NCBI GenBank assembly: GCA_031276485.1 | Contig: JAISMY010000011.1 | Coordinates: 1 to 34,065, forward strand | From: Desulfovibrio sp. | GTDB lineage: Bacteria > Desulfobacterota > Desulfovibrionia > Desulfovibrionales > Desulfovibrionaceae | Reading direction: 5' to 3' | Length of the DNA: 34,065 nt | Part shown: piece by piece, positions 9,369-16,079 of the stretch | How positions within the stretch are numbered: the first letter of the stretch is position 1 | How the letters are laid out: each line of letters begins with the position of its first letter | Translations under genes and position numbers: made by a program | The notes under the pieces: generated by a model | Told to the model about the DNA's origin: nothing | The model's database searches: none | What the model saw: only the letters and a program-made list of their open reading frames with translations

Positions 9369-10601
9369 TTAAGTGAGCGCTCTCATGGGAGAATGCGCCT
9401 GCGTCCCTTGCCTTTCCGGCACCGGCCGGAGCCTGGCCTTCCCGCTCAATAATTCAGGAACAATGCGGTACACCGCCGTGTTCTTCAAACTGCGCTCCGC
9501 ATAGATCGCGGCCTTGTCCGCATGCTCCGGGGAATATTTTTCCGCCAGCAGCACCAGGGCGCGTTTTTTCTCCTCCTCGTCCGCGACCGGGAACACTCGC
9601 CCGATGACTGTCGCACTTGCGTAATACGTCGAGAAAGACTTGTCGTACACCGGCTCCGTATCCGCAACCACGCTGAAGCAGACCCGGTTGTTGCGGGCCA
9701 TGATTGCCACTTTGCGCCCCGCCGGCGCGCAATGGAAGTACAGTGCCCCATCGGACAGCACATAGGACAAAGGCACGGCATACGGCCAGGAGCTTCCGTC
9801 GTCCAGGGCCAGCACCCCGTATTCGCCACGCTCCAGTAATTTCAGGACGTCGTCGCGCCCCGTTTCCCGATCCCGCCTGCGCATGCGCACGGCAACGGGC
9901 GCGGCCGCCTGCGCCTCGCGCACCGCCCGCATGATCGCCGCAAAGACCGCGTCCGCATCCATGTCCGTCGTATCTATAATAACGGCGTCGTCCGCGGGGC
10001 GCAAAGGGGCCGACGCCCGGCTCTCGTCCTGTACGTCCCGTGCCCGGATCCGCGCCTCAATCTCACGGATATCGGCATCCCGGCCGGCAGCGCGCAACTG
10101 CAGCAGACGCCGCCCGGCCCGCACCCGCGCCGAGGCCGACAGGTAAATTTTGCAGAAGGCATCGGGAAAAACAACCGTGCCCATGTCCCGCCCTTCCGCG
10201 ACCAGAGCGTGCCTGTCGCCCAGCGCCCTCTGGGCCTGTTTCATAAATTCGCGCACCTCGGGCAGAACGGCGATCGCGGCGGCCGCCATGCCTGTCTGCT
10301 CGGCGCGGACCTCGTCGCCGACCGGCTCTCCCCGGCATAAAAGACGGGATGAGACCCCAACTCCTTCAAGGCTGAACACGCAGGCGGCAAAACAGCGCGC
10401 CGGTTCCGGGGTTCCCGGCGGCCCGGTGCGCGCCGGGTCGAAACCCGCGCGCTGCAATTCCAGGGCCAGGGTCCGGAACATGGCCCCGGTATCCAGGCAG
10501 GGTACGCCGAGTTCCTCTGCTACGCGCACGGCCAGCGTACTCTTGCCCGCCCCGGCCGGGCCGTCGACGGTTACAATCATGCTGCGGGCGCGCTTCGTCA
10601 T
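9369..10601 (-). CDS. cmk: Cytidylate kinase fused to a Nim-like FMN split-barrel domain
   Basis: A 410-residue two-domain protein. Residues about 8-230 are a cytidylate kinase that phosphorylates (d)CMP with ATP: P-loop GPAGAGKST (14-22), LDTGAMFR (36-43), and AEGRDMGTVVFPDA (135-148). Residues about 238-390 match the pyridoxamine-5'-phosphate-oxidase-like split barrel of the Nim (nitroimidazole reductase) type: MRRRDRETGRDDVLKLLE, YGVLALDD, YAVPLSYVL, LYFHCAPAGRKV and a late VYRIVPE strand. Such barrels bind FMN; the substrate is unknown. Stand-alone Cmk is about 220-230 residues, so the second half is an added domain in one unbroken frame. ATG at 10601 has GGAGGG seven bases upstream; the frame extends to 10799 but would overlap hisC. 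It follows hisC by 100 bases and is probably cotranscribed. Confidence 0.88.
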   Translation of the reverse strand: MTKRARSMIVTVDGPAGAGKSTLAVRVAEELGVPCLDTGAMFRTLALELQRAGFDPARTGPPGTPEPARCFAACVFSLEGVGVSSRLLCRGEPVGDEVRAEQTGMAAAAIAVLPEVREFMKQAQRALGDRHALVAEGRDMGTVVFPDAFCKIYLSASARVRAGRRLLQLRAAGRDADIREIEARIRARDVQDESRASAPLRPADDAVIIDTTDMDADAVFAAIMRAVREAQAAAPVAVRMRRRDRETGRDDVLKLLERGEYGVLALDDGSSWPYAVPLSYVLSDGALYFHCAPAGRKVAIMARNNRVCFSVVADTEPVYDKSFSTYYASATVIGRVFPVADEEEKKRALVLLAEKYSPEHADKAAIYAERSLKNTAVYRIVPELLSGKARLRPVPERQGTQAHSPMRALT

Positions 10602-10701
10602 ACGTGCGCCCTCCGGCATCGGCGTACGCCCGCCGTTACGCATGCGCAAGCCGTCGGCTCCCGGTGCAGGCCCGCCTTTCCGATGTGCAGGAAACCTTCC
10701 C

Positions 10702-11817
10702 TCATATGCATAACTCACGAATATAACGGATAAATTCCTTGTTTTCCCGCTCCGTGCCCACGCTGACCCGCAGGTATTCCTCAAGCCCGTAGCTCGCAAG
10801 CCGGCGGATAATCACTCCGCGGGCAAGCAGTCCCTCGAATATTTCCGCAGCGTTCAGGCTGTGTTCCGTTCCCGGCCTGAACATAAGAAAGTTGGCCTGC
10901 GAGGGATACACTACAAAGCCCAGAGCCGACAGTTCCTTGTGCAGCAGGGTGCGGCCCTCGGCGACGACGCGCCGCGTTTCCCCGTAAAACGCCCTGTCGC
11001 CCAAAGCGGCGATGCCTGCCGCCTCGGCCGCGGTATTAACGGAAAACGGCATATGCACCGAGCGCAGCACCGCGGCAAGCGCCGGGGGCAGGATGCCGCA
11101 GCCGAGACGCAGTCCGGCCAGCCCGTAGATCTTGGAGAAAGTGCGCAGGACGGCGACATTGCCGAATTCGTCCAGCAAGCGCAGAAAGGACTGCGCTTCG
11201 GGATCGACGCAAAAGTCTATGTAGGCCTCGTCCAGCACCAGAAGACAGGAGGGCGGAAGCCGGCGGGCCAGAGCTTCCACCTCCGCGCGCTCGGGACAGG
11301 CGCCCGACGGATTGTCCGGCATTGTAAGGAAGAGCAGCGCGGTCCTGTCGTCCGCAGCAGCCGCCAGACCGGGTATGTCGAAGGAAAAATCCTCCCTGCG
11401 CGGCACGCTCCGGAACTCCACCCCGCACAGCCTGCTCAACACCCTGTACATGCTGAAGGACGACCTGGAGGCAACCACGTTGTGCCGGCCGGGCACAGGG
11501 CAGACCCGGAGCAGCAGGTCGATGATCTCGTCCGAGCCGTTGCCGGGGACGAAACGCTGTTCGGGCAAGGAGTAGTGTGCGGCCAGAGCCGCGACAAGGT
11601 CCGGGTTGCCTTCGCGCGGGTAACGGAAGCCGAGTCCGGCATTACGCCGCACGGCCTCAAGCGCTGCGGGAGAAATGCCCAGGGGGTTCTCGTTGCCCGC
11701 CATCTTGATCACCGTGGAGAGCCCGAAACGCTCACGGACCCCGGCAACGGAAAGCCCCGGCACATACGGGTCAAAATCCGCCGCTTCCGGGCGGAGATGA
11801 AAGGCAGTCCTGTTCAT
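10702..11817 (-). CDS. hisC: Histidinol-phosphate aminotransferase
   Basis: PLP enzyme that converts imidazole acetol-phosphate to histidinol phosphate in histidine synthesis. 371 residues, normal for the family. It shows the N-terminal GNENPLGISP motif (41-50), GNGSDEIID (92-100), DNPSG (168-172), DEAYIDF (196-202) with the PLP aspartate and tyrosine, and the Schiff-base lysine in TFSKIYGLAGLRLG (K229). HisC-type enzymes can also act on aromatic amino acids, so broader activity cannot be excluded. ATG at 11817 is preceded by AAGGAT at a longish spacing. No other his genes are in the window; the partner is the cmk fusion gene downstream. Confidence 0.93.
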   Translation of the reverse strand: MNRTAFHLRPEAADFDPYVPGLSVAGVRERFGLSTVIKMAGNENPLGISPAALEAVRRNAGLGFRYPREGNPDLVAALAAHYSLPEQRFVPGNGSDEIIDLLLRVCPVPGRHNVVASRSSFSMYRVLSRLCGVEFRSVPRREDFSFDIPGLAAAADDRTALLFLTMPDNPSGACPERAEVEALARRLPPSCLLVLDEAYIDFCVDPEAQSFLRLLDEFGNVAVLRTFSKIYGLAGLRLGCGILPPALAAVLRSVHMPFSVNTAAEAAGIAALGDRAFYGETRRVVAEGRTLLHKELSALGFVVYPSQANFLMFRPGTEHSLNAAEIFEGLLARGVIIRRLASYGLEEYLRVSVGTERENKEFIRYIRELCI

Positions 11818-12105: not shown

Positions 12106-12134
12106 TTGACCGCCGAAATCCGATGATGTATACG
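12106..12134 (+). promoter_or_regulatory. Sigma70-type promoter of the ribosomal protein cluster
   Basis: TTGACC (12106-12111), a 17-base spacer and TATACG (12129-12134), with an A/T-rich block (AATTTTTTTCTT, around 12077-12088) upstream that could act as an UP element. Transcription would start near 12141, giving a leader of about 390 nt before rpsJ. 11921-12105 otherwise holds small GCATCA repeats but no gene. Confidence 0.7.
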
Positions 12135-12140
12135 CTCCCT

Positions 12141-12526
12141 TCGCGTTGCCTAAGGGCCGTTGCCGCAATTGCCGCAACACGCCTGCCTTCGGCAAAGCGG
12201 GAGGCGGATGGATTCCGCCTTGGAGTTCCCGGTCGCACCTTCGCCGACCGGGGTTGACATTTGCAGGCGCGCCGGCTTTTCCGGCGTCCGATGCAGGAGC
12301 CGCGTACACGCGCCGGCTCCGCCCGCAAAAGCCTGCAAATCTCCGTGGACCGCACAGCGGTTCAGCCGGCGGGCACAGGTGACGACATGAAGGAAAACCG
12401 TCGTGTGGAGCCGGTTTTTTCTTTTATCAGAGACGCCTTACGGTTTGCGGCATGTCCCTTCCGGACAGGGAGGACAAGCCGGCCGGAACGGGATGCGGAC
12501 TGAAACAGGCATGACGGGGTAAGGTG
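12141..12526 (+). promoter_or_regulatory. Long structured 5' leader of the S10 operon
   Basis: The leader contains an ordered set of inverted repeats: AGGCGGA/TCCGCCT (12202-12220); CCCGGTCG/CGACCGGG (12228-12252); a 10-bp perfect stem ATTTGCAGGC/GCCTGCAAAT (12259-12268 with 12331-12340) that encloses two hairpins, CGCCGG/CCGGCG (12270-12286) and GGAGCCG/CGGCTCC (12296-12320), forming a three-way junction; GGACCGC/GCGGTTC (12347-12363); and AAAACCG/CGGTTTT (12394-12418) followed by a T-rich run. CCGGCTCC (12313-12320) can instead pair with GGAGCCGG (12407-12414). In Escherichia coli L4 controls the S10 operon through such a leader; here any ligand is unknown and only inferred. Confidence 0.6.
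12387..12503 (+). CDS. Candidate 38-residue leader peptide upstream of rpsJ
   Basis: ATG at 12387 is preceded by AGGTGA (12377-12382) with a four-base gap, and the frame runs 38 codons to TGA at 12503, 23 bases before rpsJ. The product begins MKENRRVEPVFSFIRD and is basic. It overlaps the AAAACCG/CGGTTTT hairpin, so translating ribosomes would disrupt that structure. The position suits a regulatory upstream reading frame, but the peptide matches nothing I know and could be a chance frame. Confidence 0.3.
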   Translation: MKENRRVEPVFSFIRDALRFAACPFRTGRTSRPERDAD

Positions 12527-12844
12527 ATGACCACAGTAAGCAGCGACCGGATCAGAATCAAACTCAAGGCGTACGACTACCGCATTCTCGACAAGGCGGT
12601 AGGGGAAATCGTGGATACGGCCCGCAATACCGGCGCCGGCGTGGCCGGCCCCATCCCGCTGCCTACCGGCATCCATAAATATACCGTGAACCGCAGTGTG
12701 CATGCGGACAAAAAATCGCGCGAGCAGTTCGAAATGCGCATACATAAACGGCTGGTGGACATCATTGAACCCACGCAGCAAACCGTCGATGCCCTCGGCA
12801 GGTTGTCCCTGCCCGCCGGCGTGGATGTGGAAATCAAGCTGTAG
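12527..12844 (+). CDS. rpsJ: 30S ribosomal protein S10
   Basis: First protein of the cluster; 105 residues, the usual length. The product uS10 sits in the 30S head and, as NusE, joins the antitermination complex with NusB. Family sequence is clear: [37 protein letters not shown], and the C-terminal [22 protein letters not shown] at 12527 is used; GTG at 12524 is just upstream in frame, and AAGG (12521-12524) is unusually close, with GGGG (12516-12519) as an alternative ribosome-binding site. It is 10 bases ahead of rplC. Confidence 0.97.
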
Positions 12845-12854
12845 GGAGGCCGGC

Positions 12855-13484
12855 GTGGCTGCAGCATCGGGAATTTTGGGCAGAAAGCTGGGCATGACCC
12901 GCGTCTTCGCGAGCGACGGCTCGGCAGTCGCCGTGACGGTCATTGAAGCCGGCCCCTGCCCCGTCATCCAGCTCAAGAACAAGGAAAAAGACGGCTACAA
13001 CGCCGTGCAGCTCGCCTTCGGCGCGCTTCGGGAAAAGCTGGTCGGCAAACCTCTGGCGGGGCATTTCGGCAAGGCGGGCGCGGGCTGCTTCCGCAGCCTG
13101 CGGGAAATGCGCGCGGACAGTTCGGACGGGCTGAACGTCGGAGACAGCGTGGACGTCACGATGTTTTCGCCCGGCGATCTGGTCAGGGTGACGGGCCGGA
13201 GCATAGGCAAAGGCACGGCGGGCGTGATGAAACGCTGGAATTTCCGCGGCGCCTGCGCATCGCACGGCGCGGAAAAGGTACACCGGAACGCCGGCGGCAT
13301 CGGCAACAATACCGAGCCCTCCAAGGTCTGGAAAGGTAAAAAGATGGCCGGCCGCATGGGCAACCGGCGGGTGACGGTCAAAAATGTGAAAATCGTCGCC
13401 GTCCGCCCCGAAGACAATGTGATCCTGGTCGGAGGACCGGTGCCCGGTCCCAGAAACGGCCTGGTTCTGGTGCGCAGGCAGTAG
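12855..13484 (+). CDS. rplC: 50S ribosomal protein L3
   Basis: uL3, an early assembly protein that reaches toward the peptidyl transferase centre; 209 residues. Starts at GTG 12855 with AGGGAGG (12843-12849) upstream and the N-terminus [15 protein letters not shown]; the long upstream open frame overlaps rpsJ and is not used. The conserved central loop with [16 protein letters not shown] and [24 protein letters not shown] carries the residue region methylated on Gln in some bacteria; here that position reads as His/Asn-rich and is not certain. 159 bases follow before rplD, long for this cluster. Confidence 0.97.
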
Positions 13485-13643
13485 CGTCATGTCCTTCGCG
13501 GAAGGACGTGACTCCGGACGCCCGGCGCGGCCGGGAGCGCCGCCGCAGACGGCGCGCGCAAAGCGGAAACCAGGTTTTCAGCTTTGCGGTCTTCACGCCT
13601 GTTGCGGCAGTACCGGCGAGCTATCTCAGCAGAGGACAGCGTA
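13485..13643 (+). promoter_or_regulatory. Long rplC-rplD spacer with a strong hairpin
   Basis: Most gaps in the cluster are under 25 bases; this one is 159. It begins with a 10-bp stem, CATGTCCTTC paired with GAAGGACGTG around 13488-13510 (one G-U pair), followed by further GC-rich palindromic stretches. No gene is supported in it. It lies just before rplD, whose product L4 is the autogenous repressor of this operon in enterobacteria. Confidence 0.4.
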
Positions 13644-14300
13644 ATGGCCCAGGTACCGGTTTTTGATCAGGAAAACAACGAAGCCGGGAGCGTCTCCCTG
13701 GCTCCGGAAGTCTTTGAGGTGCAGGCAAGGCCGGAGATACTCAACCTTGTCGTGCGCGCGCACCGCGCCGCCCTCCGCTCAGGCTGCCACTCCACCTTGA
13801 ACCGCGCGCGCATGAAAGGCGGCGGCAGTAAACCGTGGAGGCAGAAAGGCACCGGGCGCGCCCGCTCCGGCTCCAACATCTCTCCCGTCTGGACCGGCGG
13901 TGCCGTCGCCTTCGGCCCCACGCCGCGCGACTACGGCTTCAAGGTGAACAAGAAAGTCCGGCGTCTGGCCCTGCGCATGGCCCTGTCTTCACGACTCGCC
14001 GCGCAACGCCTGACGGTGATCCGGGATATCGTTCTGCCTGAAGCGCGGACCCGACTTTTCGTTGCCGTGCAAAAAGCCCTCAACCTGGAAAAATCCCTGC
14101 TGGTCGCCCCGGCCGAGGCGCACAATCTGGTGCTCTCCGCGCGCAACGTGCCGGGCGTCACCGTGCTGCCCCCCGAACGGCTCAACGCCTACGAAGTGCT
14201 CCGCCACAGAAGGCTTGTGCTGCTGGAAAGCGTACTGGAACCCGTCACCGCGCGCCTCGCGCCCCGCGCGGACGACGACGGCGCGACAAACGCGGAATAA
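13644..14300 (+). CDS. rplD: 50S ribosomal protein L4
   Basis: uL4, 218 residues, lines the exit tunnel and is an early binder of 23S rRNA. Signature regions: the tunnel loop STLNRARMKGGGSKPWRQK followed by GTGRARSGS, and FGPTPRDYGFKVNKKVRR. C-terminal Rossmann-like part LVLSARNVPGVTVLPPERLNAYEVLRH is intact, followed by a short acidic tail (ADDDGATNAE). ATG at 13644 has AGAGGA upstream; the frame is open to 13584 but that stretch is not L4-like. In Escherichia coli L4 represses its own operon via the leader and by premature termination; whether that holds here is unknown. Confidence 0.97.
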   Translation: MAQVPVFDQENNEAGSVSLAPEVFEVQARPEILNLVVRAHRAALRSGCHSTLNRARMKGGGSKPWRQKGTGRARSGSNISPVWTGGAVAFGPTPRDYGFKVNKKVRRLALRMALSSRLAAQRLTVIRDIVLPEARTRLFVAVQKALNLEKSLLVAPAEAHNLVLSARNVPGVTVLPPERLNAYEVLRHRRLVLLESVLEPVTARLAPRADDDGATNAE

Positions 14301-14311
14301 GGAAGCCGGTC

Positions 14312-14611
14312 ATGGAGTATACGCAGATTCTCATCAAGCCGCTCATTTCCGAAAAAGGCACCTTCCTCAAGGAAAAGGCCGGGCAGGTGGCCTTCTATGT
14401 GCACCGCGACGCAGATAAGCAGCAGGTCAAAAAGGCGGTTGAAGCGGCCTTTTCGGTTACGGTCAAGGCGGTGAACATCGTGGTGAAAAAGCCCCGCGAC
14501 CGCGTGTTTGCGCGCGGCCGCTCGCGCCGCACGGGCCGCGTCCCGGGCGGCAAAAAGGCCTATGTGACCCTGTCGCCGGGCGACAAGATCGAGTTTTTCG
14601 AGGGAGTGTGA
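14312..14611 (+). CDS. rplW: 50S ribosomal protein L23
   Basis: uL23, 99 residues, at the exit of the peptide tunnel, docking site for trigger factor and signal recognition particle. Family motifs: [47 protein letters not shown] and [18 protein letters not shown]. The region between ([15 protein letters not shown]) is the basic flexible loop. Starts at ATG 14312 with GGAAG upstream, 11 bases after rplD; its stop is one base before the start of rplB, so the two are translationally linked. Confidence 0.97.
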
Positions 14612-14612
14612 G

Positions 14613-15437
14613 ATGGCCGTACGCACATTGAAACCGACCTCGCCGGGCAGGCGTTTTCAAACCGTTTCCGATTTTGAGGAAATAAGCTCCTCGCAGCCGG
14701 AAAAGTCGCTGACCGTCGGTCTGCGCAAGAAGGCGGGAAGGAACAACAACGGACGCATTACCAGCCGCCGGCGCGGGGGCGGGCACAAACGGCTGTACCG
14801 CATCATAGACTTCAGGCGCGACAAGACGGACATCAGCGCGACCGTGGCGAGCATCGAATACGACCCCAACCGCTCGGCGCGTATTGCCCTGCTGCGCTAC
14901 GCGGACGGGGAAAAACGCTACATCATCGCCCCGGTCGGCCTGAACGTCGGCGATGCCGTCGTCGCCGGAGCGGGTGCGGACATCAAGCCGGGCAACGCCC
15001 TTCCCATGGTGAAAATTCCCGTGGGAACCCTGGTCCACAACATCGAACTGCACCCCGGGCGCGGCGGCGTGTTCTGCCGCAGCGCCGGATCCTACGCCCA
15101 GGTCGTGGCCAGGGAAGGAAAATATGTGACCCTGCGCATGCCATCGGGCGAGGTGCGCAAGGTGCTCTCGGCCGGGTACGCATCCATAGGCCAGGTGGGC
15201 AACATCCAGCACGAAAACATTTCCCTCGGCAAAGCGGGCCGCAACCGCCTGCTCGGCCGCCGGCCCAAGGTCCGCGGCGTGGCCATGAACCCTGTGGACC
15301 ACCCCCTGGGCGGCGGCGAAGGCAGAAGCTCGGGCGGCCGGCATCCGGTCAGCCCCTGGGGCGTGCCTACCAAGGGGTACAAAACGCGCGACCGCAAAAA
15401 ATCCTCGTCCAAGCTCATCCTCAATCGCCGGAAGTAA
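14613..15437 (+). CDS. rplB: 50S ribosomal protein L2
   Basis: uL2, 274 residues, close to the peptidyl transferase centre and needed for subunit association. The RNA-binding core is present ([37 protein letters not shown]) and the C-terminal catalytic-region loop [20 protein letters not shown] carries the conserved histidine. The highly basic tail ([18 protein letters not shown]) ends normally. The start ATG is one base from the rplW stop. Nothing unusual. Confidence 0.98.
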
Positions 15438-15452
15438 GTCTGGAGTGCCGAG

Positions 15453-15737
15453 ATGCCGAGATCGTTGAAAAAAGGGCCGTTTATCGACGGCCACCTGCTG
15501 CGCAAGGTCGAAGCGGCCAATGCGGGCAACGAGCGCCGCGTGATCAAAACCTGGTCGCGGCGTTCCACCGTGCTGCCCGAAATGGTGGGCCTGACCTTTG
15601 CCGTGCACAACGGCAGGAAGTTCATACCCGTGTTCGTCACAGAAAATATGGTCGGCCACAAACTCGGGGAATTTTCCGCCACGCGCGTCTTTCACGGCCA
15701 TTCCGGCGACCGGAAGGCCAAGGCAGCCAAAAAGTAG
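15453..15737 (+). CDS. rpsS: 30S ribosomal protein S19
   Basis: uS19, 94 residues, in the 30S head where it contacts S13 and the A-site finger bridge. Typical sequence: [62 protein letters not shown]. Starts at ATG 15453, 15 bases after rplB, with GGAGTG upstream. Ends with a short Lys/Ala tail. Confidence 0.98.
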
Positions 15738-15746
15738 GTCTATGCC

Positions 15747-16079
15747 ATGGAAGTCAGAGCAACATTGAAAGCCGTGCGCCTTTCACCGCGCAAGGCCAGG
15801 CTGACGGCCGCGAACGTGATCGGCCTGGAAACCTCCAGGGCGCTGGACATTCTGCGCTTCATGCCGCAGAAGGCCGCCGGCATACTGCGCAAGGTCATGT
15901 ATTCGGCTCTGGCCAACAGCGCCGCCGATACGTCTCTTGATCCGGACACGCTGCTGGTCCGGCGCATCATCATCAACGAAGGCCCGAGCTGGAAGCGTTT
16001 CATGCCGCGCGCCCAAGGACGGGCCACGTCTGTCAGGAAACGCACCAGCCATATCACCGTCATTCTTGCCGAGTACTAG
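15747..16079 (+). CDS. rplV: 50S ribosomal protein L22
   Basis: uL22, 110 residues; its long beta hairpin lines the exit tunnel constriction, the site of macrolide resistance changes. Shows [36 protein letters not shown], the hairpin region [20 protein letters not shown] and the C-terminal [10 protein letters not shown]. No deletion or insertion is apparent in the hairpin. ATG at 15747, nine bases after rpsS; ten bases before rpsC. Confidence 0.97.

What the first reader, a model, noticed from the sequence alone, without database searches (positions are those of the whole stretch)
12141..12526. Long, ordered structured leader RNA before rpsJ
Seen: a good promoter (TTGACC-17-TATACG) nearly 400 bases before rpsJ, then five or more consecutive inverted repeats, including a perfect 10-bp stem (12259-12268/12331-12340) that closes a three-way junction with two inner hairpins. 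Known: ribosomal leaders for L4 control S10 operons in gammaproteobacteria. Inference: this may be a ribosomal-protein or other ligand-sensing leader of the Desulfovibrio lineage; I know of no described equivalent but cannot search.
Basis: partly seen in the sequence, partly recalled or inferred. Interest (0 to 1): 0.72.

Follow-up and report, generated by a model that had tools for sequence, protein, structure and literature searches.

The report
New leader RNA controlling ribosomal proteins
In front of a large block of ribosomal-protein genes, over 150 species of one sulfate-reducing bacterial family carry a long RNA segment whose folded shape has been kept by evolution, most likely as a switch that shuts the genes off when enough ribosomal protein is present; no RNA database or paper that I could search describes it.

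Summary
A conserved promoter (12106-12134) starts a ~385-nt 5' UTR before rpsJ, the first gene of an S10 operon (rpsJ-rplC-rplD-rplW-rplB-rpsS-rplV checked). Relatives show strong covariation: 20 of 23 pairs in the 5' domain change on both sides (0 of 500 shuffles match). A model of that domain hits 154 of 288 genomes of the same family (one has two hits), and none in 60 genomes of sister families. In all 118 loci with enough sequence, rpsJ lies downstream. Nothing reaches Rfam's thresholds. That helix competes with, or forms a pseudoknot with, a conserved local hairpin (GACAU/AUGUC), mostly lost in the window. In all 14 species of the genus the leader ends in an intrinsic terminator next to the Shine-Dalgarno; in the window itself an ~85-nt insertion (12428-12512) separates the two. 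Best reading: a new ribosomal-protein leader controlling the operon by transcription attenuation, analogous to the E. coli L4/S10 leader but different in structure. The ligand (L4 is the best guess) and the switching are inferred, not shown.

The parts
12106..12134 (+). Promoter: -35 TTGACC (12106-12111), 17-nt spacer, -10 TATACG (12129-12134)
   Evidence: Sequence; same element in the same place in 98 of 103 homologous leaders vs 1.8 expected; aligned in all 14 species of the genus
12141..12526 (+). Leader RNA (5' UTR of the S10 operon); transcription start inferred at about 12141
   Evidence: z = -3.3; homologous leaders in 154 genomes
12142..12181 (+). First hairpin, CGCGUUGC (12142-12149) with GCAACACG (12174-12181)
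   Evidence: CGCGnnGC/GCnnCGCG seen in most of the genus alignment; not formally counted
12182..12201 (+). Hairpin A, CCUGC/GCGGG
   Evidence: Covariation helix 1 (3 of 4 pairs change on both sides)
12202..12220 (+). Hairpin B, AGGCGGA/UUCCGCCU
   Evidence: Covariation helix 2 (8 of 8 pairs change on both sides)
12228..12252 (+). Hairpin C, CCCGGUCG/CGACCGGG
   Evidence: Covariation helix 3 (8 of 8 pairs change on both sides)
12259..12340 (+). Long-range helix P2 (12259-12268 with 12331-12340) closing a three-way junction; inner hairpins 12270-12286 and 12296-12320
   Evidence: 9-10 of 10 pairs in 13 of 14 species of the genus; the family-wide equivalent has 90.3% of cells paired, with compensatory changes
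12256..12288 (+). Remnant of local hairpin P1 (GACAU/AUGUC in most relatives); only GAC 12256-12258 with GUC 12286-12288 is left in the window
   Evidence: Present in most other genera (helix 1: 91.5% of cells paired); degenerate here
12347..12363 (+). Small hairpin GGACCGC/GCGGUUC between P2 and the terminator
   Evidence: Complementary bases recur in the relatives with changed letters (read; not formally counted)
12365..12420 (+). Intrinsic terminator: GCCGGC 12365-12370 with GCCGGU 12410-12415, inner ACGAC/GUCGU 12382-12386/12400-12404, then a U tract 12415-12420
   Evidence: GC stem plus U run in 14 of 14 species of the genus; outer stem 96.7% paired, 3 pairs with compensatory change
12428..12512 (+). 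~85-nt insertion between the terminator and the Shine-Dalgarno, in this species only
   Evidence: Absent from the other 13 leaders; weak partial copies elsewhere
12527..12844 (+). rpsJ (ribosomal protein S10), first gene of the S10 operon
   Evidence: Pfam PF00338, 4.4e-35
12855..16079 (+). Downstream genes checked: rplC, rplD (L4, 13584-14300), rplW, rplB, rpsS, rplV
   Evidence: Pfam hits

Best explanation
This is a ribosomal-protein leader, an autoregulatory 5' UTR of the S10 operon, not described in the sources searched and restricted to part of one family (the Desulfovibrionaceae group). A dedicated promoter starts a ~300-650 nt leader. Its 5' hairpins and the domain closed by long-range helix P2 form the sensing part, and a terminator just before the Shine-Dalgarno is the output. 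Proposed mechanism in the window genus (inferred): the 3' strand of P2 (GCCUGCAAA) can pair upstream with UUUGCAGGC (P2) or downstream with GCAGGCGAC, the 5' arm of the terminator. If an operon-encoded r-protein (most likely L4, by precedent) is in excess and stabilises the P2 domain, the terminator forms and transcription stops before rpsJ. If not, the 3' strand of P2 pairs with the terminator arm and RNA polymerase reads through. Shown: conservation, covariation, promoter (by conservation), terminator, exclusive link to rpsJ. Inferred: the switch, the ligand and the direction of control.
For: Covariation in the 5' domain: 20 of 23 pairs change on both sides, 98 such cells vs 34.6 in shuffles, 0 of 500. 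P2, P1 and hairpin E: 47 double-change cells vs 15.5, 0 of 500; sliding the strands destroys the signal. P2 is re-made with different letters in several genera, e.g. ACAGG/CCUGU in G317-G320 and GUCUUACAU/AUGUGAGAC in G229. 154 of 288 genomes of the family have it, one per genome save one; all 118 testable loci have rpsJ downstream. Conserved promoter, 98/103. Terminator in 14/14 species of the genus. The 3' strand of P2 can pair with the terminator arm in all 14. Precedents: E. coli L4 acts on the S10 leader through a Rho-independent terminator, and the B. subtilis rplJL leader uses anti-antiterminator, antiterminator and terminator (PMC10931766).
Against: No ligand binding can be tested here. 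No sequence similarity to E. coli 16S/23S rRNA or to 2.1 kb of a relative's rRNA-operon sequence was found; the relative's 16S and 5' 23S were masked. The antiterminator pairing is short (mostly 5-7 bp), only marginally better than shuffles in some species, and changes in step only in one sub-branch. U tracts before the Shine-Dalgarno are present in 58 of 89 leaders of other genera, so the output may differ there. Promoter and transcript start are predicted only.
Confidence: 0.62

Rival explanations
1. The leader is a metabolite or ion riboswitch that happens to control the S10 operon.
For: Size, long-range helix with a competing hairpin, and a terminator are riboswitch-like.
Against: Only one copy per genome and always before rpsJ; riboswitch classes usually recur before several genes of one pathway. 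No Rfam riboswitch match.
Confidence: 0.1
2. Control is mainly translational: the last hairpin next to the Shine-Dalgarno blocks ribosome access, and the U tract is incidental.
For: The final hairpin ends close to the GGAG site, and about a third of the leaders in other genera lack a T4 run there. E. coli L4 regulates both transcription and translation.
Against: In the window genus the U tract after the GC stem is kept in 14 of 14 species, including G007 and G003, whose stems are re-made with GGCUGA/UCAGCC. In the window an ~85-nt insertion separates hairpin and Shine-Dalgarno.
Confidence: 0.15
3. The leader's role is processive antitermination, with S10 (NusE) and NusB acting on a boxA-like element, so that the long operon is read through.
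For: rpsJ encodes S10/NusE, and E. coli NusB-NusE represses suhB through boxA (PMC10931766).
Against: boxA-like words are no more frequent in the leaders than in shuffled sequence; conservation is in paired helices.
Confidence: 0.05
4. A leader peptide with ribosome stalling controls attenuation.
For: Some leaders hold short ORFs with a plausible Shine-Dalgarno.
Against: No ORF is conserved; 5 of 14 species of the genus have none.
Confidence: 0.02

Closest known systems
E. coli (gammaproteobacterial) S10 leader, regulated by L4
   Same: Long structured 5' UTR of the S10 operon with a Rho-independent terminator in the leader (PMC10931766).
   Different: Restricted to some gammaproteobacteria; I recognised none of its hairpin arrangement here, but made no direct alignment. 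Here the core is a long-range helix competing with a local hairpin, in a distant lineage.
rpsJ motif of Peptostreptococcaceae (C. difficile) and the Firmicutes S10 leader
   Same: Candidate r-leaders before rpsJ or for S10 (PMC11109978; PMC7247131).
B. subtilis rplJL leader (L10(L12)4)
   Same: Anti-antiterminator, antiterminator and terminator logic (PMC10931766), which the proposed pairing scheme would match.
   Different: Different operon and ligand; no kink-turn was looked for or seen here.
Deltaproteobacteria L20 r-leader
   Same: An r-leader predicted in Deltaproteobacteria (PMC7247131).
   Different: It precedes rpsT; unrelated genomic context.

Membership tests
Ribosomal-protein leader (r-leader), as used by Eckert and Weinberg 2020 | Consistently located upstream of r-protein genes | tested here: met
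   118 of 118 testable loci have rpsJ downstream; the one other was cut by a contig end
Ribosomal-protein leader (r-leader), as used by Eckert and Weinberg 2020 | Conserved secondary structure supported by covariation | tested here: met
   0 of 500 shuffles reach the observed covariation
Ribosomal-protein leader (r-leader), as used by Eckert and Weinberg 2020 | An operon-encoded r-protein binds the leader and represses | not testable with these tools
   Needs binding and reporter assays
Transcription attenuator | Intrinsic terminator between promoter and first gene | tested here: met
   14 of 14 species of the genus; less uniform in other genera
Transcription attenuator | Conserved alternative antiterminator pairing | tested here: inconclusive
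   Possible in all 14 (mostly 5-7 bp), average shuffle fraction 0.08; little independent covariation
E. coli L4-type S10 leader | Same hairpins and L4 site as in gammaproteobacteria | not tested
   No Rfam family matches, but I did not establish that Rfam holds an E. coli S10-leader model
Metabolite riboswitch | Found upstream of genes of a metabolic pathway, often in several copies | tested here: not met
   One copy per genome, only before rpsJ
Peptostreptococcaceae rpsJ motif | Its published consensus | not tested
   Consensus is in a figure that is not held

The most novel reading that the evidence does not exclude
A structurally new class of ribosomal-protein leader, built around a conserved ~15-bp long-range helix that competes with (or forms a pseudoknot with) a local hairpin beside its 5' strand. 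It evolved within one family, mostly where the S10 operon left the fusA-tufA block, and its r-protein ligand may not be L4.
Probability: 0.45. Interest if true: 0.68.

Novelty: new member of a known kind. Interest (0 to 1): 0.55.

Why it matters
The S10 operon is one of the largest and best-studied r-protein operons, yet (to my knowledge) its autoregulation is established experimentally only in some gammaproteobacteria; how other lineages balance it is open. A leader kept in more than 150 species gives a defined, testable RNA for that question and a case where an independent leader appears mostly where the operon has been separated from its old neighbours. It would also be a new RNA-protein pair for comparing how r-proteins recognise unrelated RNAs.

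Tried and rejected
Rfam at gathering score on the window and 14 relatives: nothing; at E up to 10 only a chance-level Pseudomon-Rho match, 19.4 bits against a cut-off of 45. rRNA mimicry by sequence: none above shuffles; a k-mer comparison with the unmasked 2.1 kb of a relative's rRNA operon gave nothing; the relative's masked 16S and 5' 23S could not be used. boxA: not enriched. Leader peptide: no conserved ORF. Plasmid search: no match. Literature on S10 operon, Desulfovibrio and leader together: no paper.

Full report
OBSERVATION. The window is a whole contig (34,065 bp) of an incomplete 2.2-Mb genome. A promoter-like TTGACC-17-TATACG lies at 12106-12134 and rpsJ begins at 12527. The intervening RNA folds better than all 100 dinucleotide shuffles (z = -3.3). 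The genes that follow (S10, L3, L4, L23, L2, S19, L22) are an S10 operon by Pfam.

CONSERVATION. RpsJ was found in 89 of 99 relatives. A DNA search with the leader found convincing homologues only in the same genus, but reading the upstream regions showed shared motifs in many other genera. I aligned 26 of these (A1). RNAalifold gave 23 pairs, 20 of which are kept through changes on both sides. Counted against shuffles: 98 double-change cells versus 34.6 expected, 0 of 500 shuffles as high, and the signal collapses when strands are slid by one base.

DISTRIBUTION. A covariance model of this 5' domain (R1) hits 154 of 288 genomes of the family, in 17 of 44 genera, once per genome except in one genome that has two hits and 4% contamination. 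A search of the whole order added 60 genomes from other families and no hit. All 118 loci in which rpsJ could be looked for had it downstream (the set includes a few loci fetched by rpsJ itself). Two named loci with the leader are Desulfovibrio MAGs; 25 rpsJ loci from other lineages or leaderless relatives gave no R1 hit.

PROMOTER. TTGAC-(16-18)-TA occurs 55-230 nt upstream of the GACAUUU motif in 98 of 103 leaders, against 1.8 expected from block-shuffled sequence. The median predicted 5' UTR is about 510 nt. In the window's genus the promoter aligns in all 14 species.

GENOMIC CONTEXT. In 37 of 41 sampled genomes classed as lacking the leader (one, G047, does have a weak R1 hit; one is cut too short to tell), tufA or fusA lies directly upstream of rpsJ. 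With 1.5 kb of upstream sequence, 27 of 28 leader-bearing loci show no such neighbour; one genus (G034) keeps fusA ~760 nt upstream with the leader in between. So the leader goes largely, but not strictly, with separation of the S10 operon from the str block.

CORE ARCHITECTURE. After three hairpins (12182-12252) comes GACAUUUGCAGGC. In other genera, GCAGG-(CG)-UUACCAAAUG pairs with CAUUUGGUGA-C-CCUGC about 100 nt downstream (helix P2), enclosing hairpin E (GCCGUUCCAGCCC...GGGCUGUAAGG). P2 is 90.3% paired over 43 sequences; with P1 and E there are 47 double-change cells versus 15.5 expected, 0 of 500. P2 is re-made with other letters in several genera: ACAGG/CCUGU in G317-G320, GUCUUACAU/AUGUGAGAC in G229, GUCGCUGAC/GUUAGC-A-GAC in G020. 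A local hairpin P1 (GACAU/AUGUC) is conserved in most genera (91.5% of cells). Strand order P1-P2-P1'-P2' means that P1 and P2 either form a pseudoknot or exclude one another; in the window's genus their 5' strands overlap, and P1 is reduced to 3 bp in the window itself.

OUTPUT. In all 14 species of the genus a GC stem (GCCGGC/GCCGGC or close variants; GGCUGA/UCAGCC in G007 and G003) is followed at once by 5-8 U and then, ~15-24 nt later except in the window, by the ATG. The outer stem is 96.7% paired, with compensatory changes in 3 of 7 pairs. In the other genera a T4+ run within 55 nt of the ATG, with a hairpin close upstream, occurs in 58 of 89 (no shuffle control, so only suggestive). The 3' strand of P2 (GCCUGC) can also pair with the 5' arm of the terminator (GCAGGC) in all 14 species, mostly over 5-7 bp, with duplex energies on average better than about 92% of shuffles. 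This gives a possible antiterminator, but the support is modest.

MECHANISM. Shown: a conserved RNA, covarying helices, a conserved distant promoter, a conserved terminator in the window genus, and an exclusive link to rpsJ. Inferred: an operon-encoded r-protein binds the P2 domain and favours the terminator. L4 is the best guess because it is the known regulator of the E. coli S10 operon, where it acts partly through a Rho-independent terminator (PMC10931766). Eckert and Weinberg used the same 'prior ligand' argument and warn that it is uncertain (PMC7247131).

KNOWN OR NOT. No Rfam family reaches its threshold on the window or on 14 relatives. The 20 r-leaders of Eckert and Weinberg do not include it. 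The published 'rpsJ motif' is reported from three genera of Peptostreptococcaceae (PMC11109978). A computational ncRNA survey of Oleidesulfovibrio alaskensis does not mention rpsJ or S10 in its text. Most subscription papers could not be searched.

ALTERNATIVES. A riboswitch is unlikely because of the single, rpsJ-only location. boxA is not enriched and no leader ORF is conserved. rRNA sequence mimicry is absent in what could be tested, but structural mimicry and the masked rRNA parts are untested.

Noticed in passing
window 12428-12512: An ~85-nt insertion separates terminator and Shine-Dalgarno in this species only and coincides with a weaker Shine-Dalgarno (GGGG instead of GGAG). Partial copies (~80-92% over 25-45 nt) exist in this genome (C21:17824-17867) and in sister species, perhaps a short dispersed repeat.
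   Followed up: partly
window 9369-10799 (minus strand): One open frame joins a cytidylate kinase domain (residues 76-294) to a pyridoxamine-5'-phosphate-oxidase-like domain (315-454), an apparent fusion.
   Followed up: no
L188 (Candidatus Desulfovibrio kirbyi), upstream of rpsJ: The leader is missing although a TTGACG promoter-like element lies about 130 nt before rpsJ and a ...TTTTTGTAAACGGAG... end is kept; apparent loss of the leader in this lineage.
   Followed up: no
L017 (G034), upstream of rpsJ: The leader lies between fusA and rpsJ, a possible intermediate between the str-linked and the independent S10 operon.
   Followed up: partly
other genera, e.g. L022 (G053) region upstream of the rpsJ start: A conserved GUGAAGGA...CCCGCGC hairpin...GCGCGGGAUGUUUUUGCAAACGGAGUAG end precedes rpsJ in many species; its short UUUUUGCAAAC next to the Shine-Dalgarno is unexplained.
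   Followed up: partly
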